A stretch of 64,000 bases of DNA from Uliginosibacterium gangwonense DSM 18521 (GTDB lineage: Bacteria; Pseudomonadota; Gammaproteobacteria; Burkholderiales; Rhodocyclaceae): contig NZ_KB892834.1 of assembly GCF_000373965.1 (NCBI RefSeq), forward strand, positions 240,600 to 304,599. The letters run 5' to 3'. Below the pieces are notes generated by a model, which saw only the letters and a program-made list of their open reading frames with translations, had not been told where the DNA came from and searched no databases. Made by a program: the position numbers and the translations under genes. This document shows, piece after piece, positions 42,581-64,000 of this stretch; the stretch's first letter is position 1; the number at the start of each line of letters is the position of its first letter.

Positions 42581-42592
42581 TTTTTCTAACTA

Positions 42593-44570: not shown

Positions 44571-44598
44571 ATTAACATCAACACCAAAATTAATTACA

Positions 44599-47190: not shown

Positions 47191-47399
47191 TTCTAGCGTC
47201 TCAAATACATCATAAATGTTCCCAGTCTTTCCGCACTGTACGGAATAATCGTCTCGCAATCCCAAAAGCTCTTAAAAAAATGGGACGCGCATCAGAGGCC
47301 ACACCCTACATCCCTGACCATGCGATCAACCCGCAGGCACATTCATAAAAATTGAACTTTTGGTCGTGGTCAAAGATACTGAACCCATTCTTCTGCCCG

Positions 47400-48410
47400 T
47401 TATTGATTCCGACCTGTCTGAACGAGGTTTTGATCGTGGCTCGTAGATTCATCAAGGACGTTAACTCGATCTTGATTAACCATCACTGTACTATTTTGCT
47501 CAAATACCACAGAGTAGTCCGCCTGTTCGCTCCGGTCATCAAGCAACCGCCCAAGATATTCACCAAAAAAAGCCATCATAATAAATTGCAGCATAAAGAG
47601 CATTGACATAAAGAGGATCGTGGTAGTCCAACCTTGAACTACATTTCCACTTATCAAATGAATCAGTACGCTGTAGGCAGCAAAAAGAAATGCCGCGCAA
47701 CTGCCCATCAAGCCCATTCCCGACATCCACCTCAAAGGCCGGGAAGAGTTGAACACAAGTAGCCGGACGAGATGACGAAATCCTCGGATCAATGATTTTT
47801 CTAGCACGGCCCCCGGGCACAACTCATACACAAAAGAACAAGATGGATACCCTGTTTTTTGAATTCTCAAATAAAACTGGTGGTGAAAGCGGCCAGTACT
47901 TGTCACAGAGTTAACGGCCCGCCGACTCAAACAACGCAGTCCAGTTGCATTACGTGGAAGGTGGTAGTCCACTGCTTGCAAAATACGATCTGAGCATGCG
48001 CGGAAAAACCGGTAAACAAACGTCTGTGGTTGCTTTGCGACGCCTACGACAACATCAAAACCAGATTTGCAGATCTTGACTACGTCAGGTATCACGGATA
48101 ACGGATCGACGGAATAGTCAAGCAGCAGAACAAAATCGCCGATGGCATTCTCTAGACCTGCCGCCCACGCAACGTCAGTGTGGACATGGGCTGCCAGCTG
48201 AATGTACCGAACACTTGGCAACTGCTTCAGCATCAATTCCACCTGACCAGCAACCACTGAGTCAAGCATGGGCCCCTGTGCAATCAGAACAACCTCGTAA
48301 TCTGAGTAGCGCCTATCCAGATCACTCTGAATTTGCGTTACAGCTTCATGTAGAGTAGTGGTGTACTGGTCGACAACCAACACAACTGAAACGAAGGAAT
48401 CGCTTTTCAA
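47400..48410 (-). CDS. GtrB-like GT2 protein with two C-terminal membrane helices
   Basis: A 336-residue protein with a divergent GT2 domain (VSVVLVVDQYTTTLHEAVTQ, FVLLLDYSVDPLSVIPDVV, NATGLRCLSRRAV) and two membrane helices at about 230-290, as in bactoprenyl glycosyltransferases of the GtrB/ArnC group. The nucleophile region DDGS is not obvious, so activity on a standard donor is uncertain. It is 17 bases from the FAD enzyme gene upstream. The 209-base gap on its 3' side is AT-rich. Confidence 0.8.
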   Translation of the reverse strand: MKSDSFVSVVLVVDQYTTTLHEAVTQIQSDLDRRYSDYEVVLIAQGPMLDSVVAGQVELMLKQLPSVRYIQLAAHVHTDVAWAAGLENAIGDFVLLLDYSVDPLSVIPDVVKICKSGFDVVVGVAKQPQTFVYRFFRACSDRILQAVDYHLPRNATGLRCLSRRAVNSVTSTGRFHHQFYLRIQKTGYPSCSFVYELCPGAVLEKSLIRGFRHLVRLLVFNSSRPLRWMSGMGLMGSCAAFLFAAYSVLIHLISGNVVQGWTTTILFMSMLFMLQFIMMAFFGEYLGRLLDDRSEQADYSVVFEQNSTVMVNQDRVNVLDESTSHDQNLVQTGRNQ

Positions 48411-48427
48411 TTTATAACGCCCCCTGC

Positions 48428-49543
48428 CTAGTTTAATAACTGCTGGGAAGCAATCGCCTCAACAGCGTCATATACATTGTCTATCTTTCCGCCCATCACA
48501 CAATGGAAGCCCCGTAAGCCATGGTGTGCGCGAAATAATATCGGGCGTGAATCATCCGACTCGCTGCGCGGAAGTACTGTCTTAACCTCCCACAGTGAAC
48601 GTTCGTAACGGCATTCGCCTAGGATGGGCATGTAGCGCATGGCATCCTTCTGCATGTAACGCCAAGCACTAGTGCGCCTGTCTTCATCGAACTTCATTTG
48701 GGCGTCGCAGTAAGTATCGCCAGGTTTGTCGAGCCACTCATAATGCGGTGTATAGCGCACATGGCTAAAAGAATGCATCCCAGCAGACGGAAATGGCATA
48801 ACCGAAAAGAAAGGACCACACATGACTGTAATTCCGGCTTTCTTGAGTTCATCCGGAACTTCCACTAGGCACATCTCTGTCATCTCATGCTTGAGTGGCA
48901 CCAGTTCGATCCCTGAACGGGCCAACACATAGTTAATATGGGAATAGGTGCAGTTGAATACATGATCAGCGTAAATTTCGTCCTGTTCATCTGTAGCCAA
49001 ATCCCGTAATGTCACCAACAGACCGGTGCCTTGCTGGCGAACTTTCTCGACCAAAACGCCCATTCGGCATCTAACCGACGCAGCTTGCAGCCTGCTTACC
49101 ATGAGGTCCCTAAGCTTTTGGGCATCGAATGCATATTCCGTTACGGAAAAACATGCCTCAATCAAGTTCGGGCTTATTAATTTCTGGATGCTACTTGGCG
49201 CCGGTTCGCACGAAGCACCAATGCGTTCGCAGAATTTCAAAAACTGTTTCGCTGAGACCTTTCCCAGTGGTTTTCCAATCAAATAATACTTGGCAAAGTC
49301 CGAATCCACACAAGTGCCAAACTCTTTGACAAACCGGGGAAAGGAAATTCTTGACCGCAAGGCGGTAAGAATGCTGCGAGGATAATGATATCCATTATGA
49401 ACACGCGCCTGATTATTGAACGATGCGCGAGACATGAAACTTTGCTCTTTTTCGATCAATTGAACGTCATGCCCAGCTTGGGCGAAACTTTCAGCAAGGT
49501 ACATTCCGAAGAATCCACCGCCAATAACTAATATTTTTTTCAT
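48428..49543 (-). CDS. FAD-dependent oxidoreductase (DAO-like)
   Basis: A 371-residue protein beginning MKKILVIGGGFFGMYLAESF, a perfect GxGxxG dinucleotide fold, followed by LIEKEQSFMSRASFNNQARV and later HGLRGFHCVMGGKIDNVYDA, typical of D-amino-acid-oxidase-like folds. Such enzymes in polysaccharide loci oxidise or rearrange sugars, but the substrate is unknown. It starts the co-directional cassette of side-branch genes and is followed by GT2 after 17 bases. Its upstream 449 bases contain no gene. Confidence 0.8.
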   Translation of the reverse strand: MKKILVIGGGFFGMYLAESFAQAGHDVQLIEKEQSFMSRASFNNQARVHNGYHYPRSILTALRSRISFPRFVKEFGTCVDSDFAKYYLIGKPLGKVSAKQFLKFCERIGASCEPAPSSIQKLISPNLIEACFSVTEYAFDAQKLRDLMVSRLQAASVRCRMGVLVEKVRQQGTGLLVTLRDLATDEQDEIYADHVFNCTYSHINYVLARSGIELVPLKHEMTEMCLVEVPDELKKAGITVMCGPFFSVMPFPSAGMHSFSHVRYTPHYEWLDKPGDTYCDAQMKFDEDRRTSAWRYMQKDAMRYMPILGECRYERSLWEVKTVLPRSESDDSRPILFRAHHGLRGFHCVMGGKIDNVYDAVEAIASQQLLN

Positions 49544-50367: not shown

Positions 50368-52260
50368 TCATGCTTTCTTATTAAAGCCTTCCATCAGAGC
50401 TGTACCAAATGCCCCCATACACGCAAAAAACGGAATAATTGGTAAAATATAACGTGCCTGAACGCCACTCCAGGAACTCGCGTCAAGAATGCCAAATAGA
50501 GCTACACGCGCAACGATCGCACTGACCATAAGAACAAGCATTAAGGCAACTCCCGAGAGCTTTCGCCGAACTGCCATTACCAACAAGCCGCCTACGGTTG
50601 CAAGGCAAAATAAATAGCCTACCCACTCATATACAGTGCACAGCTTCGATATCCATCTATCTGCTCGCAGAGACTTTGAATTAGACTCAAGGCTATCAAT
50701 GCCAAGCAGAGCCCCCATGGATCCGCCAAAGTTTGCGGTTGCTCCCGCCTTTAACGCAGTAAGCATCACGCTTTTTTGCTGACCATCCGGTAACTGCAAA
50801 TGCAGTTCGGTTGGCGCTTCGATACCCATAGACGAGACTGCGAACGCATAAGCACCCGGCACATCTGGCCGCGAATCCCCCAAACGTTGCCAGGCAAAGG
50901 TTGATTGCGCGCCCCCCAAACCGATCAAACTACCTGCGGGCGCGACAACCCAGCCGCTTAACTTTAATCGAGACGGTGGTGCCCTTCGGCCTGCAAGTCT
51001 CACAAACTCATCAAACTGAGTCGGAGATGCATTCTCTGAGGGCGATGCCAGACTGCTAACCGATGGCTGTACGACAAGCTGCGAGACATTGTAAAGAGAT
51101 GAAGGCAGTGATGGCGCCCATTTTTCAAAGTCTGGATCAAGAAAAGAAGAAAGCATAAATTTCTTCTTCAGGCGTCCAGCGGCAAAAGCCAGTTCCAACT
51201 CGTCGGCAACCGCCCCATATTTTCTATCAGCGACCTTGGCACTGGCGTGCCATCCCGCATGAGCCGCAACATCGCGCAAGGCCCAGTAAAACCAGCCGTT
51301 GCCAATTTCGCCTGGCACAGCCGTGAACGCGCTTGAGATTGCAATCCACTGTTGCCCTGTAGCGCCTTCCATTGCTGGCTTTAACTCACTAAACGTAGGG
51401 CTTTCTTGGTATGCTCGCTTAATCATCTCCTTGGTGACCGTAATCTGTAGTGGGGTCCGGCCAATATCAATACTGTTCAAAGCAGCAACTGCTCGCTCAT
51501 ATCCCGGGGCCGCCAACTCGTAGCGGGCCCAAACCCCCCACTTCAGATAGTTAATTCCTGAAAGTAGAGCACCCAGCAAAAACGTCGAAAATAGAGGTGC
51601 GAGCAACAAGGGAACTACCAACGCTGGTTTATCAACACCGCGCCACCAACGAGGGCGATCTATCAAGGACCAGCCTGCCAGCAAAATAAGGGGGGCGGCC
51701 AATACTATGCCCTCCTTGCGCGTGTGGTAAGCAACTGCAAACCCAAACACATAAATAATGAGTGCGACTCGGCCACGAAGTGTTGTTTGGCCATCGCGGC
51801 AATTCCATAGCTCTATAGCTGCCGCGAGCACAGCAGCAGAAACAACCGTGAGAAATGTTTCTGCAAGCGCTCTATCAAAAACAATTATGATGTACGGATG
51901 AAATGCCAGAAAAGCGAATACAACACCACCTAACCAAGCTATACGTGTAAAGCGCTGAATGGCAAAAGCTAGATAACCGACTGCAAGTAACCAAAAAACA
52001 TCAATTGCCAATCTTGCAGGCATACCGAGGATGTACAAAAAATCTAGCCATGCTGAATAAGTCGGGAGATGCATAAAAGACATCTCATTATAAGACCCAC
52101 CCCATATTTTATTAAAAGCAGCATGAATATACCAATATTCATCATGAGGAGAATTTGTCGCTATAATATCGCGGTCGCCAGATAGATAAAGCCGCGCGAT
52201 AATAACGAGTGCAATAAAGATCCACCAGCCTCTTCTGCTTAAGACATTTTTATTAATCAT
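50368..52260 (-). CDS. Polytopic membrane glycosyltransferase-like protein (GT-C type)
   Basis: A 630-residue membrane protein with about ten hydrophobic segments in the first 230 and last 110 residues and a large soluble region between. The first periplasmic loop contains NSPHDEYWYIHAAF, an acidic pair typical of GT-C enzymes such as ArnT that use polyprenyl-linked sugars. It probably transfers a sugar on the periplasmic side. Its start overlaps the stop of the WsaF-like gene by four bases (ATGA). The AT content is intermediate. Confidence 0.75.
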   Translation of the reverse strand: MINKNVLSRRGWWIFIALVIIARLYLSGDRDIIATNSPHDEYWYIHAAFNKIWGGSYNEMSFMHLPTYSAWLDFLYILGMPARLAIDVFWLLAVGYLAFAIQRFTRIAWLGGVVFAFLAFHPYIIIVFDRALAETFLTVVSAAVLAAAIELWNCRDGQTTLRGRVALIIYVFGFAVAYHTRKEGIVLAAPLILLAGWSLIDRPRWWRGVDKPALVVPLLLAPLFSTFLLGALLSGINYLKWGVWARYELAAPGYERAVAALNSIDIGRTPLQITVTKEMIKRAYQESPTFSELKPAMEGATGQQWIAISSAFTAVPGEIGNGWFYWALRDVAAHAGWHASAKVADRKYGAVADELELAFAAGRLKKKFMLSSFLDPDFEKWAPSLPSSLYNVSQLVVQPSVSSLASPSENASPTQFDEFVRLAGRRAPPSRLKLSGWVVAPAGSLIGLGGAQSTFAWQRLGDSRPDVPGAYAFAVSSMGIEAPTELHLQLPDGQQKSVMLTALKAGATANFGGSMGALLGIDSLESNSKSLRADRWISKLCTVYEWVGYLFCLATVGGLLVMAVRRKLSGVALMLVLMVSAIVARVALFGILDASSWSGVQARYILPIIPFFACMGAFGTALMEGFNKKA

Positions 52261-53504
52261 AAATTTTTATGTGGTTCTTCCACAATAAGCTGTGAGAGTC
52301 CATCTGCCAAGACACCAGCTTCTCTCTCCCACGACGTTTGTGAAGCAAATGCCAGCCCCGCCGCCCTCAGCCGATCAGCCAGAATTGGCGAATTAATGAC
52401 TTGCAGGACGGCTTGCGCCAAACTTTCGATATTGGGTTCTGCAAGCATTGAATTTTCTTCGTTCAACAGCCATTGTGTATAAGGTGCTCGATTGCTGATC
52501 ACAGGAACGCCGCATGCCATGAGTTCAAGCGGTAGTAAAGATAGGTTTGAACACGACAACACAAGGGCAGCATCGCATCGACCATACAACTGGGGCAGTT
52601 GGTTGATTTCGACCAGACCAAGATGTTCACAAGGAAACGGGATATCATAGTCCTTGACATCCCATCCGGCCAAAACAACGCGCATTTCTGGCATTAACCG
52701 CCAGACTTCCCTCAGGACAAGTATGCCCAGCTCGAAAGCTCTTCGAGCCGTTGGTGGCCTAGCATAAAACATAACACGACGAAATTTGTCTTGTCCACGT
52801 AACTCAGGCATTGGATGATATAGACTCCGATCATACGAAAAACCAAGAGCACGAGTACGCATTCCATAGTCTTGATTCAATTTTTTTGCGAGCCAACTAC
52901 CTGCCGTAAAGGCAAAAAAACCAAATCGATAGGTATTCTCTGCAAGGATTGCATCAGTGCCTGCAGGATAAAACCATGGTTCAAAATCTTGCACAAAATA
53001 GCATTTTTCTTTGCACGCCTGAAATCGCCGGACGTAGTAGGCAGTGCGCCAAGATGTTGCCATGGCAAAGTAGGCCGCAGGCGTGTCTGCATTTAATCCT
53101 ACATACACCGAGGCTTTGAGTGGGAAAAACCACTGTTCAATTTCTTTTTTTGCGCTCACAGCCGAAGTAGGCTTTGGCTCACCCACAATAATGATCCGGT
53201 TCTCGTAGCCCTTATCTTCCAGATATTTGATGAACCTCAGGATGTTCAAGTGACCGCCCGATCCTTTCCCAACCGCGGGTATGAACCAGTTAATGCTCTT
53301 GGAAGGCATCTGCTGCACATTAGCGGAAACATCTATCGCTGCGTCCAAAAGTTCATCGTATTGGCGCGTAGCAGATATTTTCCCGAATAGGTTACCGCTT
53401 TGCAGAAAACGAGAACTGATGGTTCGCCCCAAGGTTCTCCATCCGTTTTGCTTACCAAAGCGTAGCGCTTGCCTAGCTTTCCTTGCGAGGACGTTGGCAT
53501 TCAT
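52257..53504 (-). CDS. WsaF-like GT4 rhamnosyltransferase
   Basis: A 415-residue GT-B protein. The sequence WFIPAVGKGSGGHLNILRF and the motif YFVQDFEPWFYPAGTDAILA are hallmarks of the WsaF group, which adds rhamnose to S-layer and O-antigen glycans using dTDP-L-rhamnose. The C-terminal nucleotide-sugar site is CSNLSLLPLELMACGVPVIS with its glutamate. It overlaps neighbours by ATGA on both sides. Confidence 0.85.
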   Translation of the reverse strand: MNANVLARKARQALRFGKQNGWRTLGRTISSRFLQSGNLFGKISATRQYDELLDAAIDVSANVQQMPSKSINWFIPAVGKGSGGHLNILRFIKYLEDKGYENRIIIVGEPKPTSAVSAKKEIEQWFFPLKASVYVGLNADTPAAYFAMATSWRTAYYVRRFQACKEKCYFVQDFEPWFYPAGTDAILAENTYRFGFFAFTAGSWLAKKLNQDYGMRTRALGFSYDRSLYHPMPELRGQDKFRRVMFYARPPTARRAFELGILVLREVWRLMPEMRVVLAGWDVKDYDIPFPCEHLGLVEINQLPQLYGRCDAALVLSCSNLSLLPLELMACGVPVISNRAPYTQWLLNEENSMLAEPNIESLAQAVLQVINSPILADRLRAAGLAFASQTSWEREAGVLADGLSQLIVEEPHKNL

Positions 53505-54499
53505 TTTGTACCACTTTCTGACTCTGCCATCATCAATCGCCGATCACGAGACAACCGTAATCGAATATTCTGAGGAATGCGGTTGCCATTGGCACCAAGG
53601 TAATGGCCTATCACACGCATCAGGTTGTCAAGTGGCATTGACACGACATATCTGAAATGCGTTCTTATTAACTTGGTCTTTAACGAAAAGCTGGCATCAC
53701 GCAAGGTGATGGCAATCAGGCTACGCATTGCATGGAGAAAACCTTGTCCATGCTTATAGCTAAAAAGTCTGTTTAGCGCAAAGCTTTCATCAAAGCTACG
53801 CTGCAGTCGTTCAATAAATCCATAGTTATGCGAGTGGTACACTACTGCGTCATGGGCATAGGCCTTGCGGAAACCAGCCTCAATTATGAGGCGCGCCCAA
53901 GCCTGATCCTCTGCAAAATCGACTTCGGGATAAGGTATTTCTTGCCAAACCGAGCGTCGTAGCATGGCATTGTTGTCGGAAAAGAAGTAGAGATACTGTC
54001 GGTAGCCTTCCTCACGCTCATAACGAATACGATCATCAAGCTCAATTACAGGCTTGGGTAGAAACCCAAGGAAATGTTGCTCCATCTCAATACGCGTAAA
54101 AGGTGAGGCATCTGGATACGCGATATGACGGCCAAAAACGCCCGCAATCTGGGTGTCAGTTTCTATTGCCTTCACCAACTCGGCAAGCCAAATTGGGTTA
54201 GCAGGAAGGGCGTCCTGTGTCAGCATCGCAATATAATCACCAGTCGTATTTGCAATCGCGAAGTTTCTCGTTTTACCGTGCCCAAATTCACTTGCGGGTA
54301 TTTCAATCAGTCTGACTGTAGGGTAGCGCTTTACAAGATCAGCAGTACCATCAGTTGAACCCGAATCAACTACCAGCACTTCAAAGGGCCATGCTGTCTG
54401 CTGACTCATAAGCACATGCAATACGTGCCCCAACTGCGGCCCAGCATTCTTTGTGGGGATGACCACCGACACCTTAATCCCCTGTGCCACTTTGGTCAT
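53501..54499 (-). CDS. Family 2 rhamnosyltransferase-like protein
   Basis: A 332-residue GT-A protein: VSVVIPTKNAGPQLGHVLHV, VVDSGSTDGTADL and ASEFGHGKTRNFAIANTTGD, followed by AMLTQDALPANPIW and DFAEDQAWARLIIEAG. The ASEFGHGxTRN block is typical of rhamnosyltransferases in rhamnan and O-antigen loci. It overlaps the epimerase and the WsaF-like gene by four bases each, in one co-translated set. Confidence 0.88.
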   Translation of the reverse strand: MTKVAQGIKVSVVIPTKNAGPQLGHVLHVLMSQQTAWPFEVLVVDSGSTDGTADLVKRYPTVRLIEIPASEFGHGKTRNFAIANTTGDYIAMLTQDALPANPIWLAELVKAIETDTQIAGVFGRHIAYPDASPFTRIEMEQHFLGFLPKPVIELDDRIRYEREEGYRQYLYFFSDNNAMLRRSVWQEIPYPEVDFAEDQAWARLIIEAGFRKAYAHDAVVYHSHNYGFIERLQRSFDESFALNRLFSYKHGQGFLHAMRSLIAITLRDASFSLKTKLIRTHFRYVVSMPLDNLMRVIGHYLGANGNRIPQNIRLRLSRDRRLMMAESESGTK

Positions 54500-55428
54500 T
54501 TATTTATTACCTTGTGCAGCCATGCCGCCGTCTTGATAATTCCATCCTCTAACGTCACCTGTGGTGCCCATCCCAACTCCTGGCGCGCCAAAGAATTAGC
54601 CAGCACGCTCGTGGGCACATCAAATGGACGGCCAGGTTGGTAATTTCGAACCACCTTACGGCCCAGCACTCGCTCCAATAGAATGATCATTTCATTGAGA
54701 CTGGTGCCCACGCCTGAACTGATATTGAAAACGGACTCTGCTCCATCGTAATCAACAGCGCGGGCAAATGCATCAGCGACATCACTGACATAGAGATAAT
54801 CACGTGTAACTGTTCCATCCCCCCAAATTTCTATTGGCTGATTCTGAATGGCTTTACTCAAAAAAACCCCCACGGCCCCCTGTGCTGTTTCAACCCGCTG
54901 GCGCTCACCAAACGGGTTCGCAACCCGAAGAATATTTGCCTTGATTCCGTGAAGACTTTGATACATCAGCAGGTACTTTTCTATCGCCAGCTTGGTGATG
55001 CCATAGGAGACCCGAGGTTCGGTCGGATGACGTTCGTCGAGCGGCAGGTAAGTCGGATTGCCGTAAACAGTTCCACCAGACGAAATAAACACAATTTTGC
55101 GGACACGCTTTGCCACCATTGCACTAAGGAGCTGCAATGTGGCAACTAGATTAGTTTGTACGTCGTAGAGAGGATCGTCATTAGAGTTTTTAGGCAGTGT
55201 TGTCGAAACCAAATGCAGAACGACATCAACGCCATCTATCGCTTCGCTTACATCATGGACACTCATCAGATCGCCCGTAAGCCACTCGACTTTTTCATCA
55301 TCCGAAAATTGACGATAGGGTTCCACCCGAGGACGCTCAAATATGCGTAACTCATGACGATCTTTGAGCAAACGGTCTGCAATTGTTGACCCTATAAAAC
55401 CACCACCACCAAAAATAGTAATTTTCAT
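54496..55428 (-). CDS. NAD-dependent nucleotide-sugar epimerase/reductase
   Basis: A 310-residue extended SDR protein with GGGGFIGSTIADRLL, FISSGGTVYGNP and the catalytic YGITKLAIEKYL (YxxxK), plus the substrate-side motif GDGTVTRDYLYVSDVA. It resembles UDP-glucose 4-epimerases and dTDP-6-deoxy-4-keto-sugar reductases. Since no rmlD is present here, it could reduce the dTDP-4-keto sugar, for example to 6-deoxy-talose, or epimerise a UDP-sugar; sequence alone does not decide. Confidence 0.82.
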   Translation of the reverse strand: MKITIFGGGGFIGSTIADRLLKDRHELRIFERPRVEPYRQFSDDEKVEWLTGDLMSVHDVSEAIDGVDVVLHLVSTTLPKNSNDDPLYDVQTNLVATLQLLSAMVAKRVRKIVFISSGGTVYGNPTYLPLDERHPTEPRVSYGITKLAIEKYLLMYQSLHGIKANILRVANPFGERQRVETAQGAVGVFLSKAIQNQPIEIWGDGTVTRDYLYVSDVADAFARAVDYDGAESVFNISSGVGTSLNEMIILLERVLGRKVVRNYQPGRPFDVPTSVLANSLARQELGWAPQVTLEDGIIKTAAWLHKVINK

Positions 55429-57866
55429 CGTGTCAAACCAACAACATTCGTTGCGGCACTGCGCAAATTGTTTACAGAAAGAATCAAAGGAAATAGCCTC
55501 TCAATGGCATGCAGCAATGTGCCATCATAGGGCAGTGGTTCGTCAGGGTAATCGTTCCAATCCAGCTTCAAATTTACCAATGGAGCTAACGCTGAAGTTC
55601 TGGCCCAAAACATCGTTCCAACCGGAAAAATAAAATATTCAGGTAGTTCCTGAATATCAACACGTGCTGCAAGAGTTTCGGCGAAAACACGGTTGCTGCC
55701 CCAGCTCACTACGTACGGATCATCGGGGAAAACTATTCCAATTGATGTGTCAGTTATCATTTTGGACAAGATATGATCTGCCATCCCCTTCGATGCACCA
55801 CCCAGCAAATTTTCCAACAAGAATCGATACCACGACTCACCCATCGCGGCATCCTTCACATCAGCACTCTTTTTTGTATGGATATGACCAACAAAATCAT
55901 AGTTGGTCAAGAACTTCTCCCCAAATGTGGTGAGAAACGGCCCGATATCCCTACCACGATTCGGCACCAGCTGAATATCAACAACCTTGCCTTTGTAATT
56001 TTTGAAAGCACTCACAACCTGTTCACGTGCTTCCTCACTAGCGATGCTAACAAACAAGTCGGGGAGGATGCTATTGCCCAAAAGACGCGTCGCTATTTCA
56101 GGTAACAGCTCCGGGTAATAAGCATGCAAGTGCAACGCAATGCGCTGATTGTCAGGCAATTCACGGTTTTCCGCATTCGCCTCAACAATGACAGGGTAGT
56201 TCCATGGCCCCTCAGGGCACCCCGCGCGCAAATACTCTGCAAATGGGTCAGCACCTTCGATTGAAAGTCCGTGCTGCTCTAAGTAAATGCCGGGGTGAAA
56301 ACCAGGAAAAGGTTTTCGGCGATCAATTCCACTGGCCCACGCCCGAACATAAGAGCGGACATGCTCTTCAAGAGACTGATTTTGCCGATGAGGGGGGCAC
56401 GAAAAATCTGGCCGAAACAGACCAGAACTGAGAATTACTTTTGTATCTGCCTTCTCTTGTTGCGTACGATCGCAGACAACTTGAGCTAAATGCTCAAGAC
56501 GAGCGACATACTCTTTCATACTGAAGTAAGCAATCGAAGCCTCCCGGCAACGATCTGCAACGTCCTTATGCAAAGTCGGGGAACTTGCCAAAGCCAGAAT
56601 TTTCCCCGCCAAGTCAGCCGAGTCAAGATACTCCGCAACGCAATAATCCCGAAGGCCACTGTTAATCAGGAAATCTGCAATTCCGGTTGTCTTATTGAAG
56701 CAAAGCACGGGCACTCCATGCGCCATTGCATCAATCGCCACATTTGGTAATGGGTCTAGCCGCGATGAAAGCAGAAGCAGATCAGCAAGCTCATACGCGG
56801 TTTCAATGGCGATGGTTTCATCAACGAATAAAACATATTCCTGCAAGCCAGCACGACGAATTTGGTCTGCCAAATACACAGAATATCCAACATCATTGTC
56901 TGGATCGTATCCTTTTCCGATCCAGACGAAACGGCATTTATCCCCGCCTGGAGCGCGGAGAACACGGGCAGCACATTCGATAAACAGGTCAACGCCTTTG
57001 CGTAACTGCACGAACCCAGCCCCAAGGACAATCACCGAGTCCTCAGCAATACTCTTAGGCCGGATCAAGCGACGTATGCGCGCGCTCTCCGCTTGACGTT
57101 GCTCCTCGCTGAATTCCCCCACAGGCAACAGACATCGCCCTTGGGGAAGAATGTGAGCGGACCGCTTACCCAGATCAGGATATTCAGAAAATGCATTTTC
57201 CATGGTCACATTTGCGGAAAAAACGACCTCGCCAGACCAAAAAATAGCTCTTCTGAACGCGTCCCGGGGACGGGTATAGGAGGCAAATTCATGCACTAGG
57301 CTGATTGTGGGAACAAAATGTTCACCCAGTGCGGGTAGGACAACGCATGATTCGATACTGTTAACCAAAGCAAACTTGAATTTGACAGTCCCACACAACT
57401 GACCAACGATCAGATCTGCCAAAACAGGATTTCCCCTTAAATTCGGCGATATTATCACCGCCGAAGCCGATAGCTGGAACGCATTGAAAAGCGCACCACC
57501 CCCTAATAACAATACAACAACGTTATACTGCCCAACGAGTGCTTGGACGAGATTGAGGCTGAGTACGGGTGCTCCCGTTCTCGACGCTTCGTGACTGACC
57601 ACTAGAATTGTCTCGCGATCAGCTTTGAGGTCTTGGTTCCCACAAAAGTCCAATGCCGGCAATGAAAAAATACGTCCCTCTTGATGACCGTGTAGCAAAT
57701 AGTGTTCAGCCGCATCAAATCCCGCGTTTTTTACATCTGGGTTTAATTTCAGATACAGATTACGATCAAATCCTTCAGGCAGATCTGCACCTATTTGCGC
57801 AGTACGACTTCGCCTCAACAGAGCGATGAAACGTTTCAATAGTATTAAGTATGAGGATAGTTTCAT
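55425..57866 (-). CDS. Bifunctional GT4 glycosyltransferase - RgpF-like protein
   Basis: An 813-residue two-domain protein. Residues about 85-480 form a GT-B/GT4 domain (LVVSHEASRTGAPVLSLNLV, LGAGFVQLRKGVDLFIECA, LLLSSRLDPLPNVAIDAMAH). Residues about 590-813 match RgpF of rhamnan synthesis (IALHLHAYYPELLPEI, VPNRGRDIGPFL, FVGHIHTKKS, FPVGTMFWARTSAL). A short module FDRNLYLKLNPDVKNAGFDA at 33-66, ending HYLLHGHQEGR, is repeated in degenerate form before the RgpF part (FHPGIYLEQHGL, EYLRAGCPEGPW). It probably makes two different linkages of a rhamnose polymer. It overlaps the ruler gene stop and the epimerase start by four bases each. Confidence 0.85.
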   Translation of the reverse strand: MKLSSYLILLKRFIALLRRSRTAQIGADLPEGFDRNLYLKLNPDVKNAGFDAAEHYLLHGHQEGRIFSLPALDFCGNQDLKADRETILVVSHEASRTGAPVLSLNLVQALVGQYNVVVLLLGGGALFNAFQLSASAVIISPNLRGNPVLADLIVGQLCGTVKFKFALVNSIESCVVLPALGEHFVPTISLVHEFASYTRPRDAFRRAIFWSGEVVFSANVTMENAFSEYPDLGKRSAHILPQGRCLLPVGEFSEEQRQAESARIRRLIRPKSIAEDSVIVLGAGFVQLRKGVDLFIECAARVLRAPGGDKCRFVWIGKGYDPDNDVGYSVYLADQIRRAGLQEYVLFVDETIAIETAYELADLLLLSSRLDPLPNVAIDAMAHGVPVLCFNKTTGIADFLINSGLRDYCVAEYLDSADLAGKILALASSPTLHKDVADRCREASIAYFSMKEYVARLEHLAQVVCDRTQQEKADTKVILSSGLFRPDFSCPPHRQNQSLEEHVRSYVRAWASGIDRRKPFPGFHPGIYLEQHGLSIEGADPFAEYLRAGCPEGPWNYPVIVEANAENRELPDNQRIALHLHAYYPELLPEIATRLLGNSILPDLFVSIASEEAREQVVSAFKNYKGKVVDIQLVPNRGRDIGPFLTTFGEKFLTNYDFVGHIHTKKSADVKDAAMGESWYRFLLENLLGGASKGMADHILSKMITDTSIGIVFPDDPYVVSWGSNRVFAETLAARVDIQELPEYFIFPVGTMFWARTSALAPLVNLKLDWNDYPDEPLPYDGTLLHAIERLFPLILSVNNLRSAATNVVGLTR

Positions 57867-60800
57867 GCCTCCCTCCTTCTAATGAATTGAGCTATAACCC
57901 GAAATGGTTTCGTTAAACGCCAACTTGGGGAATCTTCCATGGCAATAATGACTTGCTCGCGCTCCGCCAATTGTTGGGTTAGTGCACGAATCTCAGCTTG
58001 CCTGTCCTCCAGCTCTGTGCTTACACATGTGAGTTGCCTAGAGAACTCCGCCACTTGCTTTCCGTAAACCATTAATTCCCCATCCTTGTGCGTTACGGTC
58101 TCTTGCATCAATCCGAGGGCATCTTGCTGTGTGCGAATCTGCTCTGCAAATTCTTCTACTTGCTGTTGGTAAGCCGCCAGCTCACCATCCTTGTGCGTGA
58201 TGGCCTCTTGCATCAATACGAGGGCATCTTGCTGCGCGCGCACCTGCCTGGCAAATTCTTCCGCTTGCTCTTGGTAGGCCGCCAGTTCACCGTCCTTGTG
58301 CGTGATGGCCTCTTGCATCAAGGCGAGGGTGTCCTGCAGTGCACGCACCTGCCTGGCAAATTCTTCCGCTTGCTCTTGGTAGGCCGCCAGTTCGCCATCC
58401 TTGTGCGTGATGGTCTCTTGCGTCAGGGCGAGGGTGTCCTGCAGTGCACGCACCTGCCTGGCAAATTCTTCCGCTTGCTCTTGGTAGGCCGCCAGTTCGC
58501 CATCCTTGTGCGTGATGGTCTCTTGCGTCAGGGCGAGGGTGCCTTGCTGTGCGCGCACCTGTTTGGCAAATTCTTCCGCTTGCTCTTGATAGGCCGCTAG
58601 TTCACCGTCCTTGTGCTTGATGGTCTCTTGCGTCAGGGCGAGGGTGCCATGCTGCGCGCGCACCTGTTTGGCAAATTCTTCCGCTTGCTCCTGGTAGGCC
58701 GCCAGCTCGCCATCCTTATGCGTTACGGCCTCTTGCATCAATGCAAGGGTATCTTGCTGTGTGCGAACCTGCCTGGCAAATTCTTCCGCTTGACTTGCGT
58801 ATCTTCGTAACTCATTCTGAGCTTGCTGGAATCCAAGCCGAGTTTGCTGAAGATCTCTAGATATCTTGCGGATTTGCGACAGACGATCTCGACGAGGGTG
58901 AATCCACCACCAGGGTTTGTTTTCAATCTCATGCACATTCGCGAGCGCAAAAGCACATGAACTTGCATACTCTAAGATAGAAGCTATCTCAGGAAGACCA
59001 AATTCAGCAGGGTTATCTATGTCTCCTAATGCCACGTCCCAGCTTCCTGCTACAGCTCGTCGGGCTTCTGCAATACCCTTCCTCCAATGTGCGATTGCTC
59101 CGACATGATCTTTGTTGCCGATACAAAGTAAACCAAGTATCAAACAAGCTTCGACTGTCCTGTTGCAGAGTAGAGGACTAAAAGCCAACGCATCGATTGA
59201 AATGCAACGCTCAAATGCTAGCTTTGCCTTTGAAAATGCACCTTGCTCAATCCAGAGCTTGCCAAGAACAAAAAGGAGCGAAACACTCCACCGTACACCA
59301 TGCGGAGTTTTTGGATGTCCTTCTAGGTAGGCCTCAATACGATGTTCAAGTGACTCAATTTCATCCCCATGCGCATTTCCACTGAAGGAAAGTTGATAAG
59401 CAATTACACACAGCGCAGCACCAACATCTGGCGTATCAGAAGGCGAATTGACGATGACCTGTTCCGCCAAATCAATTAGCGCTGAAGGATCACGCAGACG
59501 GTGGCCCGTATCAACCATACTCCGTACTAACCATGGATTCTGGTAGTCGCGCGAAAAGGTCGTCACATTCCAGGAGGGGGTGGAAAATGTCGGGTACGCC
59601 GTTTCGCGGTATGGCACGGCGGCCCCATCAAGCGGAGAGCGCATGGCAACAGCCAACCACCACTCAGCGTTTGGTTCCGTTCCATTCTTCGCTAAAGTAA
59701 GGGGAATCTGCTTCAGGGAACGCCCTGCGCTTTGCCAAGTCTTGCGCTCAGGCCCAACTTTGTACTGATTAGCAGTCTGGGCGACAAGCATCTCAAGAAT
59801 AAAACTGGACTCAAGCTCCTTACGCAGTCGATCCAAAGTGTAAACATGAACATGAAATGGGTTCGGGTCCTCCCCCGTCTCATCGCTCCAATCATTGGGG
59901 ACACTGGTGATAATGCGCCCACCGGGAGTCAACACACGGTGGAACTCCGCAAGCAGTTTGATATTTTCCTCAATATGCTCAAGCGTTTCGAATGAGACAA
60001 CGACATCAACGGAATGATCCGAGATCTCCGCAAGTCCATCCGGCAACATCCCACAACGAAACTTAAGGCTAGACAAATCCGATGAAAAATTTCGTACTGC
60101 ATAATCGATGGCGTACTCACTTCCATCAATGCCCAGTGTGCTTTTGGCGGTCGAAGCACATTGCAAAATGTAGCTTCCGTATCCAAGTCCGCACGCGGCG
60201 TCCAGCACCGTGTCCCCCGGTCGAATAAATTGGGTAGCCCATTGATAGCGGGCAACATGTGCATCGGAGCGCGCTCCTGTCTCTCGCAGCATGTCCATGT
60301 GCAGGTCACGCTCAGCGGCTAGTGCCGCTATAGGGTATCTAGACGCTGCAGCCTCTGGGATACACTCGAGCAGAACTGTGATTTGCCAGCCATCATGCTC
60401 TAGCAATTCGTAATCATTGACCTGATAGTAAGAGGGATGCTTTCTGAACCCCGCTTCAAAAAAACGTTGCTCCCACCAAGCTCTTGGCTTTACGGTCAGA
60501 TGCCAATGGCCGTCGCGGTCAATAGTTGTCGCGATCCGAAAATAAACAGCGCGCCGTGACACTCTTCGTATCTCACGAAGAGACTGAACCACATCCTCTT
60601 CTGAAAGGTGCTCCAAGCAATCGGTGGACACGACGGTATCAAAAGCCCCATCTTTGAAGGGTAGATGGAGTACCGACGCTTTATGAAAACGTTCTGGGGC
60701 ACTTAAGTTCGCATGATCAACGGCAAGTTGAGACACGTCCACGCCATGAGCATCAACACCCAGACGAAGCAACGCACGAACCAACTGGCCCATTCCCGAA

Positions 60801-60940
60801 CCGATATCAAGAATCCGACCACCGCCACAAGAAAGAATGATTTCCTCTGCAAGTGCATCAGCATCGGCAAAACTTTGTTCTCCGAAGCGATCACCGCTGG
60901 CCCAATAATTGTCGTATACAGTAGCGTAATCAAATGCCAT
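57863..60940 (-). CDS. Double methyltransferase with repeat coiled coil (WbdD-like chain terminator/ruler)
   Basis: From ATG 60940 (MAFDYATVYDNYWASGDRFG) the product has 1025 residues. Two class I SAM methyltransferase domains come first: motif I ILDIGSGMGQLV at 43-54 and VLDAACGLGYGS at 245-256. A helical, TPR-like region spans about 470-690. Residues 717-961 are seven near-identical 35-residue repeats (QAEEFARQVR ... HKDGELAAYQ), exactly five heptads each, predicting a long uninterrupted coiled coil. The tail ends EDSPSWRLTKPFRVIAQFIR, a basic amphipathic segment seen on other O-antigen enzymes. In E. coli O9a, WbdD caps the chain by methylation/phosphorylation and its coiled coil measures length. 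The same role is inferred here; no kinase domain is seen. The start overlaps wzt by 11 bases. Confidence 0.85.
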   Translation of the reverse strand: MAFDYATVYDNYWASGDRFGEQSFADADALAEEIILSCGGGRILDIGSGMGQLVRALLRLGVDAHGVDVSQLAVDHANLSAPERFHKASVLHLPFKDGAFDTVVSTDCLEHLSEEDVVQSLREIRRVSRRAVYFRIATTIDRDGHWHLTVKPRAWWEQRFFEAGFRKHPSYYQVNDYELLEHDGWQITVLLECIPEAAASRYPIAALAAERDLHMDMLRETGARSDAHVARYQWATQFIRPGDTVLDAACGLGYGSYILQCASTAKSTLGIDGSEYAIDYAVRNFSSDLSSLKFRCGMLPDGLAEISDHSVDVVVSFETLEHIEENIKLLAEFHRVLTPGGRIITSVPNDWSDETGEDPNPFHVHVYTLDRLRKELESSFILEMLVAQTANQYKVGPERKTWQSAGRSLKQIPLTLAKNGTEPNAEWWLAVAMRSPLDGAAVPYRETAYPTFSTPSWNVTTFSRDYQNPWLVRSMVDTGHRLRDPSALIDLAEQVIVNSPSDTPDVGAALCVIAYQLSFSGNAHGDEIESLEHRIEAYLEGHPKTPHGVRWSVSLLFVLGKLWIEQGAFSKAKLAFERCISIDALAFSPLLCNRTVEACLILGLLCIGNKDHVGAIAHWRKGIAEARRAVAGSWDVALGDIDNPAEFGLPEIASILEYASSCAFALANVHEIENKPWWWIHPRRDRLSQIRKISRDLQQTRLGFQQAQNELRRYASQAEEFARQVRTQQDTLALMQEAVTHKDGELAAYQEQAEEFAKQVRAQHGTLALTQETIKHKDGELAAYQEQAEEFAKQVRAQQGTLALTQETITHKDGELAAYQEQAEEFARQVRALQDTLALTQETITHKDGELAAYQEQAEEFARQVRALQDTLALMQEAITHKDGELAAYQEQAEEFARQVRAQQDALVLMQEAITHKDGELAAYQQQVEEFAEQIRTQQDALGLMQETVTHKDGELMVYGKQVAEFSRQLTCVSTELEDRQAEIRALTQQLAEREQVIIAMEDSPSWRLTKPFRVIAQFIRRREA
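58058..58792 (-). repeat. Seven tandem 105-bp repeats inside the methyltransferase gene
   Basis: Units begin at minus-strand positions 58792, 58687, 58582, 58477, 58372, 58267 and 58162, each 105 bases and in frame; a degenerate eighth follows from 58057. Central units are nearly identical in DNA, and over 100 consecutive bases repeat exactly between units at 58320-58540, indicating recent duplication. Each unit adds 35 residues of coiled coil. Confidence 0.95.
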
Positions 60941-62369
60941 TAAAATTCCCAACCGGCTGGGCACTCATTTTGAGATCAACAACACCCCCAAAGTGGTACT
61001 CCCTGGGGTTCGTTGTTACTGTAAAAAATGCGGCTTCATCAATCCAATGAAGCATGTGTTGTTCGGCGTAGTACGGCTGCCCTTCTCTAGTAATCGCAGC
61101 CTGAACCTCATGAAGATTCGGGCCAAGACCACAGACAAAGTCAAAAGCGATAGCAAATCGTTCTTTGGCCTTAAAGGAACGTTTCCAAAAAACATCTCCC
61201 GTTGCTAAACCGGCGAGGATGGCCATATCCTGATTAAGAGTGCCCCATGAATAAATCTTTACGCCTTCTTTGTTCCTTAATCTCAATGCGACATTCAGAT
61301 TGGTAAGTTCCTGGTGCGCGATGCACTCCACAACCACGCGAACCATTTCGCGGGGGTCAAAATGCGAACACCCCTCGCCCTTCGCATTGAGTACGACAAC
61401 CTTTAATATCTCAGCTTCCATATCTCCAAACGAGAGCAACGCTGACCTCGTTTGTACACTTGCAGACTCGGTAGAGATAGATTCAACAGATTTCGTGTCA
61501 ACAGCAGAAGGCAAAGTACTTACCACTGAGGGACGGTTCATCGCCCTAGTCTTCGCTGCCTTTTCTTTTAACGCAAGCGCCGACTCATTAAGTGCTTTAG
61601 TTTCTTCCTCGTGCAATTGCTTTCTGTATGCCAGCAATGTCTCCGCAGAATTCCCTATCATTTGCACTAAGCCTGTCCGAAGCAGGACAGCCCGATTAGT
61701 AAGCGTGCGAACTGACTCCTGATCGTGAGAAACAAAGAGGAGCGTCGTACCATTACTCGTTAGCCGTTCCATACGCTCGAAACAACGTTTTTGAAAGAGC
61801 GCATCACCAACGGCCAAGGCTTCATCGACAATCAAAATATCGGGATCGATACAAACTTGCACTGCAAATGCAAGCCGCACCAACATCCCGCTCGAATATG
61901 TCTTTACGGGCTGATTTATGAATTCACCGATATCGGCAAATGCAGCGATGTCGTCGAAACGTGCTTCAATTTCTGCATTGCTGAAGCCCAGCACTGCTGC
62001 ATTCATATAAACATTCTCGCGCCCTGTAAATTCAGGGGAGAAACCAGAGCCCAATTCCAGCAGTGCTGCAATGCGGCCCGTAGTTTCAATACCGCCACAA
62101 GTAGGATTCAGCGTGCCGCAGATCATTTGCAGCAGCGTAGATTTACCGCTGCCATTGCGCCCAATAATACCGACGGCTTCGCCTTTTTTAATTTCAAAAG
62201 AAACATCTCTGAGAGCCCAGAATTCGCGGAAATATTGCTTAACCGGCTGCCCTCCTAGGCGTTGAAGAGGCGGTAGGACAAACTGCTTAAGGCGGTCTCG
62301 TGGGGTGTCATATATCTCGTATCGTTTACTGAGATTGGTAACACGGATAGCGATATCGCTAGAGGACAT
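60930..62369 (-). CDS. wzt: O-antigen ABC transporter ATPase Wzt with carbohydrate-binding domain
   Basis: From ATG 62369 (MSSSDIAIRVTNLSKRYEI) the product has 479 residues. The ATPase domain has Walker A GRNGSGKST (70-78), the Wzt-type signature YSSGM (158-162), Walker B ILIVDEA (D182, E183) and the switch histidine in FVSHDQ. After a charged linker, residues about 330-479 form a beta-rich domain (NLNVALRLRNKEGVKIYSWG, FAIAFDFVCGLGPNLHEVQA) like the Wzt C-terminal domain that recognises the capped non-reducing end of the O-antigen. Such a domain implies export of chains carrying a terminal modification, which fits the adjacent methyltransferase. It overlaps wzm by 11 bases. Confidence 0.93.
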   Translation of the reverse strand: MSSSDIAIRVTNLSKRYEIYDTPRDRLKQFVLPPLQRLGGQPVKQYFREFWALRDVSFEIKKGEAVGIIGRNGSGKSTLLQMICGTLNPTCGGIETTGRIAALLELGSGFSPEFTGRENVYMNAAVLGFSNAEIEARFDDIAAFADIGEFINQPVKTYSSGMLVRLAFAVQVCIDPDILIVDEALAVGDALFQKRCFERMERLTSNGTTLLFVSHDQESVRTLTNRAVLLRTGLVQMIGNSAETLLAYRKQLHEEETKALNESALALKEKAAKTRAMNRPSVVSTLPSAVDTKSVESISTESASVQTRSALLSFGDMEAEILKVVVLNAKGEGCSHFDPREMVRVVVECIAHQELTNLNVALRLRNKEGVKIYSWGTLNQDMAILAGLATGDVFWKRSFKAKERFAIAFDFVCGLGPNLHEVQAAITREGQPYYAEQHMLHWIDEAAFFTVTTNPREYHFGGVVDLKMSAQPVGNFNGI

Positions 62370-63249
62370 CAGCAAAACCCTTTCTGGTCTTTTGGAACCA
62401 GGCGTAGCCTGCCCAGACAACGGCGATAGCAGCTAGAGTGTAGACGCCCAAACCTGCCCAGTTCGGTAAATGGCCCCATATCAGCACGTCGCGTGCTTGT
62501 TCGATAATGAAGGTAAGCGGGTTAGCCATAATGAAAGGGCGGAACCCTACCGGCACTGCAGTCACTGGGTAAAAAACAGGCGACAGAAACATCAACACGG
62601 TGGTAATGATGCCGATGGTTTGTCCAACATCGCGCAAAAATACGCCGAGAGATGCAAGCATCCAAGCCAGCCCCGTGGTGAGGATGACCAGAGGCAGCAG
62701 AACCAAGGGAGCAAAAATCACCGTCCAGTGCAAGTAGCCATTAAAAAGTACAAAAGCAGCCAACAGCACACCAAGGCTGATCAAGCTGTGGAAGAGAGCA
62801 ACGCCCATGGCAATGACGGGTAGTATTTCAATCGGGAATACAACTTTCTTGACGTAATTGACGTTGGAAAGAATTACTTCGGGAGCACGATTGATTACCT
62901 CGCTAAATAGGTTAAGCACGATCATGCCGACAAAAAGCACGACTGCGAATTGCGTTTTGGTATCGCCACCGCCAGCCCCTCCCCAGCGAGACTTGAAAAT
63001 CTCTGAAAAGACAAAGGTATACACTGCTAGCATGAATACTGGATTAAAGAACGACCAGGCCAGTCCCATGGCTGATCCCTTGTAGCGTCCGACCACTTCG
63101 CGCTTGCTCATTTGCATGATGAGTTGGCGGTTGCGCCAGAGACTCTTCGCCAGTGCCATGAGGGACGTGGGTTGGGCGGAGTGAGGGTTTATCGTTGTGG
63201 ATAAGTTAGTCATACGAAGTATTTTGCTTCTGCCAGTGGTTTGCCTCAT
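62359..63249 (-). CDS. wzm: O-antigen ABC transporter permease Wzm
   Basis: A 296-residue membrane protein with about six transmembrane segments and the N-terminal REVVGRYKGSAMGLAWSFFN characteristic of polysaccharide ABC-2 exporters, followed by SNVNYVKKVVFPIEILPVI and VFLRDVGQTIGIITTVLMFL. With Wzt it pulls the finished undecaprenyl-linked polysaccharide across the inner membrane. ATG 63249 overlaps the broken rmlC stop (ATGA) and has AAGAGA upstream; ATG 63213 is the alternative. Confidence 0.93.
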   Translation of the reverse strand: MRQTTGRSKILRMTNLSTTINPHSAQPTSLMALAKSLWRNRQLIMQMSKREVVGRYKGSAMGLAWSFFNPVFMLAVYTFVFSEIFKSRWGGAGGGDTKTQFAVVLFVGMIVLNLFSEVINRAPEVILSNVNYVKKVVFPIEILPVIAMGVALFHSLISLGVLLAAFVLFNGYLHWTVIFAPLVLLPLVILTTGLAWMLASLGVFLRDVGQTIGIITTVLMFLSPVFYPVTAVPVGFRPFIMANPLTFIIEQARDVLIWGHLPNWAGLGVYTLAAIAVVWAGYAWFQKTRKGFADVL

Positions 63250-63566
63250 TGATCTCTTGCAGACGAAGTGATAGTGCCTTGGATACTACTGATGGCGAGT
63301 TTGTTCCAGGCACTGCTGCGCTCAAATTCGGGCGCCCAATAATCGATGGTTTTGTAGAGAAACTGCAATCTCTGAAAGCCTCCTAACAGGCTGCACCACA
63401 CGTTTTTGGCAGAGCATCTGTGGTGGTTATCTGGCACAAAATCAACGTCATTGCCAGTCATCTTGGTAAATTTGCGGCGGCTAGAGCTTTCAAATAAGAA
63501 ACCGTGCTCACCACCAAAAGCATTCAATTCAATAACGAGAACATCAAGAATAGGGGTGGCTTTCAC
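63246..63566 (-). pseudogene. Internally deleted rmlC (dTDP-4-dehydrorhamnose epimerase)
   Basis: A 106-codon frame begins [20 protein letters not shown] and follows RmlC to CSAKNVWCSLLG, then jumps to LQFLYKTIDYWAPEFE near the C terminus. About 65 residues, including the GLHYQ and DVAVD catalytic core, are missing without loss of frame. It cannot fold as a working cupin but still overlaps both neighbours by four bases, so it may persist because it couples translation of rmlA copy 2 to wzm. Confidence 0.8.
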
Positions 63567-64000
63567 GCTTGAATGCCTTCTTTGAGCAAACGTTGCAAGT
63601 ATTGTCCATAGCCATTTTTGGCGAGTGGCTGAGCCAGTCTCTCCAATTGCTCAGCGTTGATAAAACCTTTACGGAAAGCAATTTCTTCTGGACAAGCAAC
63701 TTTCAGTCCCTGGCGGTGTTCAATGGTTTCGATGAAGTTGCTGGCTTCGATCAGGCTCTCATGAGTACCGGTATCCAGCCATGCATAACCCCGACCCATG
63801 ATCTCCACACTGAGCTGGTCGCACTCTAGGTAGATGCAGTTCAAGTCGGTAATCTCCAACTCGCCCCGTGCCGATGGCTTGAGGCTGGCGGCAAAATCAA
63901 CGACCTGATTGTCGTAAAAATACAGGCCGGTGACCGCATAGTTACTCTTGGCTCTGGCAGGTTTTTCTTCCAAACTGGTGGCACGACCTTGCGCGTCAAA
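63563..64000 (-). CDS. rfbA: Glucose-1-phosphate thymidylyltransferase RmlA, second copy (5' end outside window)
   Basis: The C-terminal 145 residues of a second Rml[53 protein letters not shown] and [14 protein letters not shown]. It is clearly related to but divergent from the copy at 38.2 kb, especially near the C terminus, so it is an older paralogue and not a recent duplication. Its start and any rmlB or rmlD upstream lie beyond the window edge. Confidence 0.92.

What the first reader, a model, noticed from the sequence alone, without database searches (positions are those of the whole stretch)
57863..62369. WbdD-like capping and length-ruler protein beside a Wzt with terminal-sugar recognition domain
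The sequence shows two SAM methyltransferase domains, a TPR-like region, seven 35-residue coiled-coil repeats and an amphipathic tail in one 1025-residue protein, directly after wzm-wzt. In E. coli O9a the WbdD methyltransferase/kinase stops chain growth and its coiled coil sets chain length, and Wzt binds the cap. This protein has a different layout: two methyltransferases, no visible kinase, and a highly regular ruler. It may be a distinct class of chain terminator.
Basis: partly seen in the sequence, partly recalled or inferred. Interest (0 to 1): 0.8.

Follow-up and report, generated by a model that had tools for sequence, protein, structure and literature searches.

The report
Sugar-chain capping enzyme with adjustable ruler
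A gene beside a bacterial O-antigen exporter encodes a probable chain-capping enzyme with two methyl-transfer domains and a long repetitive arm; in relatives of this protein the arm differs in length between otherwise identical copies, which would make surface-sugar length easy to change by mutation.

Summary
The 1025-aa protein (57863-60940, minus strand) has two SAM-methyltransferase domains, a TPR-like bundle, 6.8 near-identical 35-aa coil repeats and a basic tail. It directly follows wzm and a wzt with a sugar-binding module. No kinase was found.

It belongs to a sparse family spread over several phyla. In 28 of 49 members examined it lies with a Wzt carrying one recognisable type of module; one member is a Wzt-MT-MT fusion, and several carry a glycosyltransferase after the coil. 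MT2's motif is intact in 49 of 49; MT1 is optional. Members without Wzt tend to have shorter tails.

Best reading: a methyl-capping chain terminator and ruler, working like WbdD but not a WbdD homologue. Capping and ruler function are inferred.

Most notable: the ruler varies within species. Seven P. aeruginosa plasmids carry 3.8, 5.8, 6.8 or 8.8 perfect 28-aa units, with no mismatch in 5.2 kb compared. Two E. coli copies differ only by a 73-aa coil duplication. E. coli O8 wbdD keeps its length in 59 of 60 listed genomes; one is partial. A hypermutable O-antigen ruler is plausible but untested.

The parts
57863..60940 (-). Putative methyl-capping chain terminator and ruler, 1025 aa
60356..60940 (-). 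MT1, N-terminal SAM methyltransferase domain (aa 1-195), glycine motif intact here
59621..60328 (-). MT2, second SAM methyltransferase domain (about aa 205-440); five checked SAM-motif residues kept in 49 of 49 members
58901..59563 (-). TPR-like helical bundle (about aa 460-680)
   Evidence: (TPR_2 below cut-off), model
57935..58885 (-). Predicted coiled coil (about aa 686-1002)
   Evidence: low model confidence
58076..58792 (-). Tandem array of 105-bp (35-aa, five-heptad) units, 6.8 copies
57866..57931 (-). Basic amphipathic tail SPSWRLTKPFRVIAQFIRRREA (aa 1004-1025), motif shared with E. coli O8 WbdD
60930..62369 (-). wzt, ABC transporter ATPase with C-terminal sugar-binding module
60933..61439 (-). 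Wzt-C sugar-binding module of the KIYSWGTLNQD / HWxDEAAFF type
62359..63249 (-). wzm, ABC transporter permease
   Evidence: ABC2_membrane
55425..57866 (-). GT4 plus RgpF-type glycosyltransferase, candidate polymerase partner (role inferred)
52257..54499 (-). WsaF-like GT4 (52257-53504) and GT2 (53501-54499), candidate rhamnan glycosyltransferases (role inferred)

Best explanation
The protein ends growth of an ABC-exported O-polysaccharide by methylating the sugar at its non-reducing end, with MT2 as the core activity and MT1 perhaps adding a second methyl group or acting on another position (inferred). The TPR-like bundle joins the catalytic head to a long coiled coil, whose basic tail sits at the membrane or polymerase (inferred from WbdD). 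The coil, about 46 nm if one unbroken helix, would let only chains of sufficient length reach the head. Wzt's C-terminal module then reads the cap and licenses export (inferred). Shown: domains, gene order, fusions, coil repeats, and natural coil-length variation in relatives. Not shown: methyl transfer, cap structure, chain length.
For: Two methyltransferase domains, helical bundle and coil repeats. Wzt with this type of C-terminal module lies with the gene in 28 of 49 members examined. In 26 of the 27 relatives the terminator frame begins before, or within 150 bp after, the end of the Wzt-C match; in L061 a gap of 1.8 kb lies between. In L045 (Opitutia MAG) one 873-aa frame holds ABC_tran, Wzt_C, MT and MT. 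In L022 (Serratia) and E. coli L137 Pfam finds a group-1 (GT4-type) glycosyltransferase after the coil, and L023, L028 and E. coli L138 are alike by sequence; this resembles the O12 and O7 terminators (PMC11231755). The module type goes with a methyltransferase: of 30 control Wzt_C loci 29 were scored; 28 score 42 bits or less, and the one at 177 bits (L130) has a coil-plus-methyltransferase gene next to wzt. Two Wzt not used to build the profile score 225 and 248. The A. aeolicus Wzt residue Trp362, which stacks on the 3-O-methyl cap (PMC9445017), aligns by my count with a Trp found in all 28 modules. The part after the bundle is longer with Wzt-C (median 186.5, n=20) than without (84, n=13), p 4e-4, or 1.5e-3 with L036, which has no such part, counted as zero. 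Tail motif SWR[IL]TxP[LF]R is shared with O8 WbdD.
Against: No experiment on this family was found. The lid Trp is not specific: 11 of the 14 control modules with a residue in that column have it (24 control rows aligned, 10 gapped there), and so has O8 Wzt. Distances of MT2 and Wzt-C do not covary once Wzt-N and Wzm are allowed for (partial r -0.03, p 0.65), while TPR and Wzt-C weakly do (0.22, p 0.02). Some members have no Wzt in the stretch fetched and four lie beside flagellar genes, so the MT2-TPR core also serves elsewhere. Nine of 28 Wzt-C-linked members lack the MT1 motif. Some Wzt-C-linked members have little or no coil (L015, L036). The coil model is of low confidence, and oligomeric state is unknown. 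Only 3 of 49 members carry the SWR tail motif.
Confidence: 0.75

Rival explanations
1. The methyltransferases decorate sugars inside the repeat unit, or a side chain, and the coil only anchors the enzyme to the membrane complex.
For: Members without Wzt nearby and with little coil exist, four of them beside flagellar genes, so the core can act outside chain termination. The locus carries other sugar-modifying genes.
Against: Conserved place after wzt, a matching Wzt-C module type, and the Wzt-MT-MT fusion. The C-terminal part is longer when Wzt-C is present.
Confidence: 0.15
2. Only MT2 is active. MT1 is a decaying or structural domain, so the protein is a one-methyl terminator.
For: The MT1 glycine motif is not seen in 28 of 49 members (two of these, L037 and L055, are broken or truncated), including 9 of 28 with Wzt-C, while MT2's is kept in all.
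Against: MT1 here keeps its motif and models confidently. Intact MT1 goes with Wzt-C (19 of 28 against 2 of 21, p 4e-5, not corrected for ancestry). L132 has a lone MT1-like domain beside the same module type.
Confidence: 0.35
3. Coil-length differences are neutral repeat slippage, or assembly errors, with no effect on chain length.
For: Perfect tandem repeats are mutable and hard to assemble. I found no chain-length data for these strains.
Against: The seven plasmid records are circular and come from seven differently named isolates; six are titled complete sequence. Length changes are whole 28-aa units and keep the heptad frame in P. aeruginosa. In WbdD, coil insertions and truncations shift modal chain length (PMC5082667, passages read).
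Confidence: 0.4

Closest known systems
WbdD of E. coli O8 / O9a (K. pneumoniae O5 / O3)
   Same: Methyltransferase head, coil, basic tail; gene directly after wzm-wzt with Wzt-C. The O8 protein of strain IAI1 shows one methyltransferase and no kinase in Pfam, and holds SWRITQPLRWL after its coil.
   Different: No clear homology beyond the SAM core; two methyltransferases and a TPR bundle; much longer, highly repetitive coil; Wzt-C of another type (37 bits against 225-248); in O8 more sequence follows the motif.
K. pneumoniae O4 ORF7 terminator (GT137)
   Same: N-terminal catalytic head, TPR-like bundle before the coil (PMC11231755, passages).
   Different: Adds Kdo as a glycosyltransferase; no sequence comparison made here.
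K. pneumoniae O7 ORF6 and O12 WbbB
   Same: Terminator, coil and glycosyltransferase in one chain, as in the Serratia, P. lactucae and E. coli relatives (PMC11231755).
   Different: O7 uses methyltransferase plus kinase, O12 a Kdo transferase; the window protein has no fused glycosyltransferase. No sequence comparison made here.
A. aeolicus Wzm-Wzt
   Same: Wzt-C reads a 3-O-methyl cap; its lid Trp aligns with the invariant Trp here (PMC9445017, passages).
   Different: Sequence match of the module is weak (about 30 bits).

Membership tests
WbdD family | Sequence homology to WbdD over the catalytic head | tested here: not met
   BLASTP of O8 WbdD with MT1 aligns 29 residues, E 0.006; hhalign with A2 gives 97.4% but only over the general SAM core, 104 columns of MT2. 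O9a WbdD was not compared.
WbdD family | Kinase domain (O9a/O3 type) | tested here: not met
   No kinase in Pfam; model aa 1-689 is MT, MT, helical bundle. O8 WbdD itself shows no Pfam kinase either.
WbdD family | Extended coiled coil after the catalytic head | tested here: met
   Heptad-periodic 35-aa repeats; helix predicted at low confidence.
WbdD family | C-terminal membrane and polymerase-recruiting tail | tested here: inconclusive
   Basic amphipathic tail with the O8 WbdD motif; binding untested.
Coiled-coil chain terminators of ABC-exported glycans (functional kind) | Gene with wzm and a Wzt carrying a C-terminal sugar-binding module | tested here: met
   Window and Wzt-C in 27 of 48 relatives.
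Coiled-coil chain terminators of ABC-exported glycans (functional kind) | Terminating enzyme at the end of the coil away from the polymerase | tested here: inconclusive
   Methyltransferases are N-terminal, coil and tail or GT4 C-terminal; where the window's polymerase binds is unknown.
Coiled-coil chain terminators of ABC-exported glycans (functional kind) | Blocks elongation by modifying the non-reducing end | not testable with these tools
   Needs biochemistry.
GT137 (O4-type terminator) | Kdo-transferase head | not tested
   No O4 sequence fetched; Pfam assigns methyltransferases to the head.

The most novel reading that the evidence does not exclude
The ruler gene is a contingency locus. 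Tandem units, mostly of whole heptads, are gained and lost in the coil by repeat recombination, so a lineage can change its O-antigen length in steps without changing sugar type, cap or exporter.
Probability: 0.35. Interest if true: 0.82.

Novelty: new variant of a known kind. Interest (0 to 1): 0.62.

Why it matters
How bacteria set the length of ABC-exported O-antigens rests mainly on the WbdD ruler, whose coil was changed in the laboratory (PMC5082667, passages). This family offers rulers that nature has already lengthened and shortened, including near-isogenic sets within one species, so the ruler model could be tested on existing isolates. It also gives a sequence signature that links a type of Wzt sugar-binding module to methyltransferase terminators, which would help predict capped O-antigens from genomes.

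Tried and rejected
Tried without success: a first scan of genome contigs with the single protein found nothing. Covariation of MT2 and Wzt-C distances was negative. No relative among 50,697 phage records at E 1e-20. No paper in the library held all terms of a search for an O97/xylulose link. The 2020 J Biol Chem review of O-antigen assembly is not held, and the 2015 ruler paper on WbdD was not read; what I say of it comes from PMC5082667.

Considered and rejected: a kinase-bearing WbdD homologue; chance repeats; the lid Trp as proof of methyl recognition, since controls and O8 share it.

Slips: my fourth MT1 criterion (an acidic residue) was one position off and no row reached four, so the test printed there is void; I used the count of three glycines and ran the test. 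In one search I had left out L036, a complete Wzt-C-linked member without a coil; one search repeats the test with it, and p rises from 4e-4 to 1.5e-3.
Full report
OBSERVATION. The frame starting at the ATG at 60940 encodes 1025 aa. Pfam gives two methyltransferase domains and no kinase; a TPR_2 match lies below its cut-off. The AlphaFold2 model of aa 1-689, from 32 sequences of the window and of loci fetched by the search for related loci, has pLDDT 90.5 and pTM 0.89: MT1 (about 1-195), MT2 (about 205-440) and a helical bundle (about 462-680). The array of 105-bp units spans 58076-58792, 6.8 copies. The heptad pattern has one strong hydrophobic position (86% ILVMF) and a weaker one three residues on (39%). 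The full-length model makes the coil helical with breaks and low confidence. Upstream lie wzt with a Wzt_C domain, and wzm; downstream a GT4-RgpF protein, an epimerase, a GT2 and a WsaF-like GT4.

RELATIVES. Searching with aa 1-689 at E 1e-30 found 8 of 399 genomes of the order and 2 of 369 of the class, own genome included both times. I treated the first 40 (L022-L061) as family members and left out the other 40 (L062-L101), whose matches stay within the methyltransferase part of the query except that L080 reaches aa 528. The family is sparse: 1 of 30 genomes in the Serratia nevei genus set and 4 of 398 in the Pseudomonas set, source genomes included, 2 of 5,426 E. coli genomes by distant DNA search with the Serratia gene and 9 of 72,556 plasmid records by protein search at E 1e-30.

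GENOMIC CONTEXT. In 27 of 48 relatives, and in the window, the Wzt C-terminal module is found in the locus. In 26 of the 27 the terminator's open frame begins before, or within 150 bp after, the end of the Wzt-C match; in L061 a gap of 1.8 kb lies between. In L045 Wzt and both methyltransferases are one open frame, confirmed by Pfam. Several of the other 21 loci are cut short by contig ends, so absence of Wzt there is not always shown. L022, L023, L028 and both E. coli proteins continue after the coil into a glycosyltransferase (Pfam for L022 and L137; by sequence for the others). L019, L021, L051 and L059 lie near flagellar genes (blast with fliC, fliD and fliF frames that I named by eye). 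A further fliC match in L038 is short and probably chance.

MT1 AND MT2. MT2's five checked SAM-motif residues are kept in 49 of 49 sequences. The three MT1 motif glycines are seen in 21 of 49: 19 of 28 with Wzt-C and 2 of 21 without (Fisher p 4e-5, or 1e-4 without two truncated or broken rows, L055 and L037). Shared ancestry is not corrected for.

THE WZT MODULE. Twenty-eight modules align with invariant residues, among them a Trp (A3) that by my count aligns with the A. aeolicus Trp362 lid over the 3-O-methyl cap (residue described in PMC9445017, passages read; the chain numbering there runs one higher). For comparison I searched Wzt_C in 200 genomes of the order (74 with a match) and took the 30 loci supplied, nearly all from the top of the list by Pfam score and so not a random sample. 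One of 30 gave no score, 28 scored 42 bits or less, and one scored 176.9, just under the lowest member (177.5); members score high by construction. That one locus has a 384-aa coil-plus-methyltransferase gene just after wzt, similar to MT1 (28% identity over 144 columns). Wzt of E. coli L137 and P. aeruginosa L140, not used in the profile, score 225 and 248; O8 Wzt scores 37. The Trp itself is not specific: 11 of 14 control rows with a residue there have it. A Mantel-type test of MT2 against Wzt-C over 26 loci was negative.

THE COIL. Of 26 C-terminal parts examined, 22 have a best repeat period above the 99% shuffle level, and in 21 of these it is a multiple of seven (14, 21, 28, 35, 42 or 56 residues); L049 is the exception; L027, L034, L035 and L041 are not significant. 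Any coiled coil favours sevens, so this shows whole-heptad units rather than proving selection. The part after the bundle is longer in members with Wzt-C (median 186.5, n=20) than without (84, n=13; p 4e-4); 16 of 49 sequences were left out because the end was missing or broken, the bundle was not found, or a glycosyltransferase is fused, and L036 because nothing follows its bundle. Counting L036 as zero gives p 1.5e-3.

WITHIN-SPECIES VARIATION. Seven P. aeruginosa plasmids sharing replicon type rep_cluster_1115 carry galE-wzm-wzt-terminator. Their proteins are 813 aa (three), 869, 897 (two) and 953 aa, with 3.8, 5.8, 6.8 and 8.8 perfect copies of an 84-bp, 28-aa, four-heptad unit. The first 2,040 nt of the gene and 3.2 kb upstream have no mismatch in any of the seven. 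In the 869-aa allele (L143) an ISPpu21 copy lies just behind the gene and the last residue differs. The largest difference is 140 residues, about 21 nm of helix. Two E. coli proteins, 1167 aa on the chromosome of SY3626 and 1240 aa on a plasmid of GmM062, are identical except for one exact 219-bp tandem copy of most of the coil (73 aa, not a whole number of heptads); in the plasmid locus only a fragment of wzt is annotated. As a control, the O8 wbdD gene is found in 303 of 5,426 E. coli genomes; of the 60 rows listed, 59 span exactly 1,278 bp at 98.3-100% identity and one is partial. TRF finds no tandem repeat in it. Assembly error cannot be fully excluded without the reads.

COMPARISON WITH THE KNOWN. 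Kelly et al. 2024 (PMC11231755; abstract, passages and the first part of the discussion read) describe coil-bearing terminators as a widespread strategy, with a TPR-like bundle in the O4 terminator and GT-fused forms in O7 and O12. PMC11380512 (passages) calls a methyltransferase gene after wzt very common. PMC11127046 (passages) describes the pairing of coil-bearing terminators with a Wzt sugar-binding module. PMC5082667 (passages) reports that WbdD coil insertions and truncations shift chain length. The overall idea is therefore known. I found no description of this MT-MT-TPR-coil family, or of natural length alleles of a ruler, in ten full-text searches, of which I saw listings and the passages named here; the library lacks most subscription papers.

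VERDICT. A new variant of a known kind: a methyltransferase-type terminator and ruler, with good contextual support and no biochemistry. The natural length series is the most valuable part, because it makes the ruler model testable on isolates that exist already.

Noticed in passing
L139-L145 (P. aeruginosa plasmids): Terminator coil is a within-species tandem-repeat length polymorphism: 3.8, 5.8, 6.8 or 8.8 perfect 28-aa units, with no mismatch in the 5.2 kb compared outside it.
   Followed up: yes
L137:14462-17965 and L138:14462-18184 (E. coli): Two proteins identical except for one exact 73-aa tandem duplication of the coil; the plasmid locus carries only an annotated fragment of wzt, next to an IS5-like element.
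   Followed up: partly
L045:7654-10275: Single open frame encoding Wzt ATPase, Wzt-C module and two methyltransferases.
   Followed up: partly
L019, L021, L051, L059: Relatives without Wzt-C nearby and without the MT1 motif lie beside flagellar genes, suggesting a role in flagellin glycosylation.
   Followed up: partly
window 63246-64000: A shortened rmlC-like frame (46% identity to the intact rmlC over 70 residues) and a second rmlA copy (75% identity over 134 residues) flank the cluster, while rmlB, rmlA and rmlC (named by eye) lie at 37671-40167; the cassette may be bracketed by rml repeats.
   Followed up: partly
window 40000-64000: GC falls from about 0.58-0.59 (30-36 kb) to 0.40-0.52 across the O-antigen genes, in keeping with horizontal acquisition.
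   Followed up: no
window 41759-49543; L137:24646-29590; L014:3027-8159: A recurring accessory set (FAD oxidoreductase, two GT2, TIM-barrel isomerase, a protein annotated as pyridine nucleotide transhydrogenase in L137) accompanies the terminator in three genomes, 28-74% identical to the window's proteins; perhaps a side-chain sugar system.
   Followed up: partly
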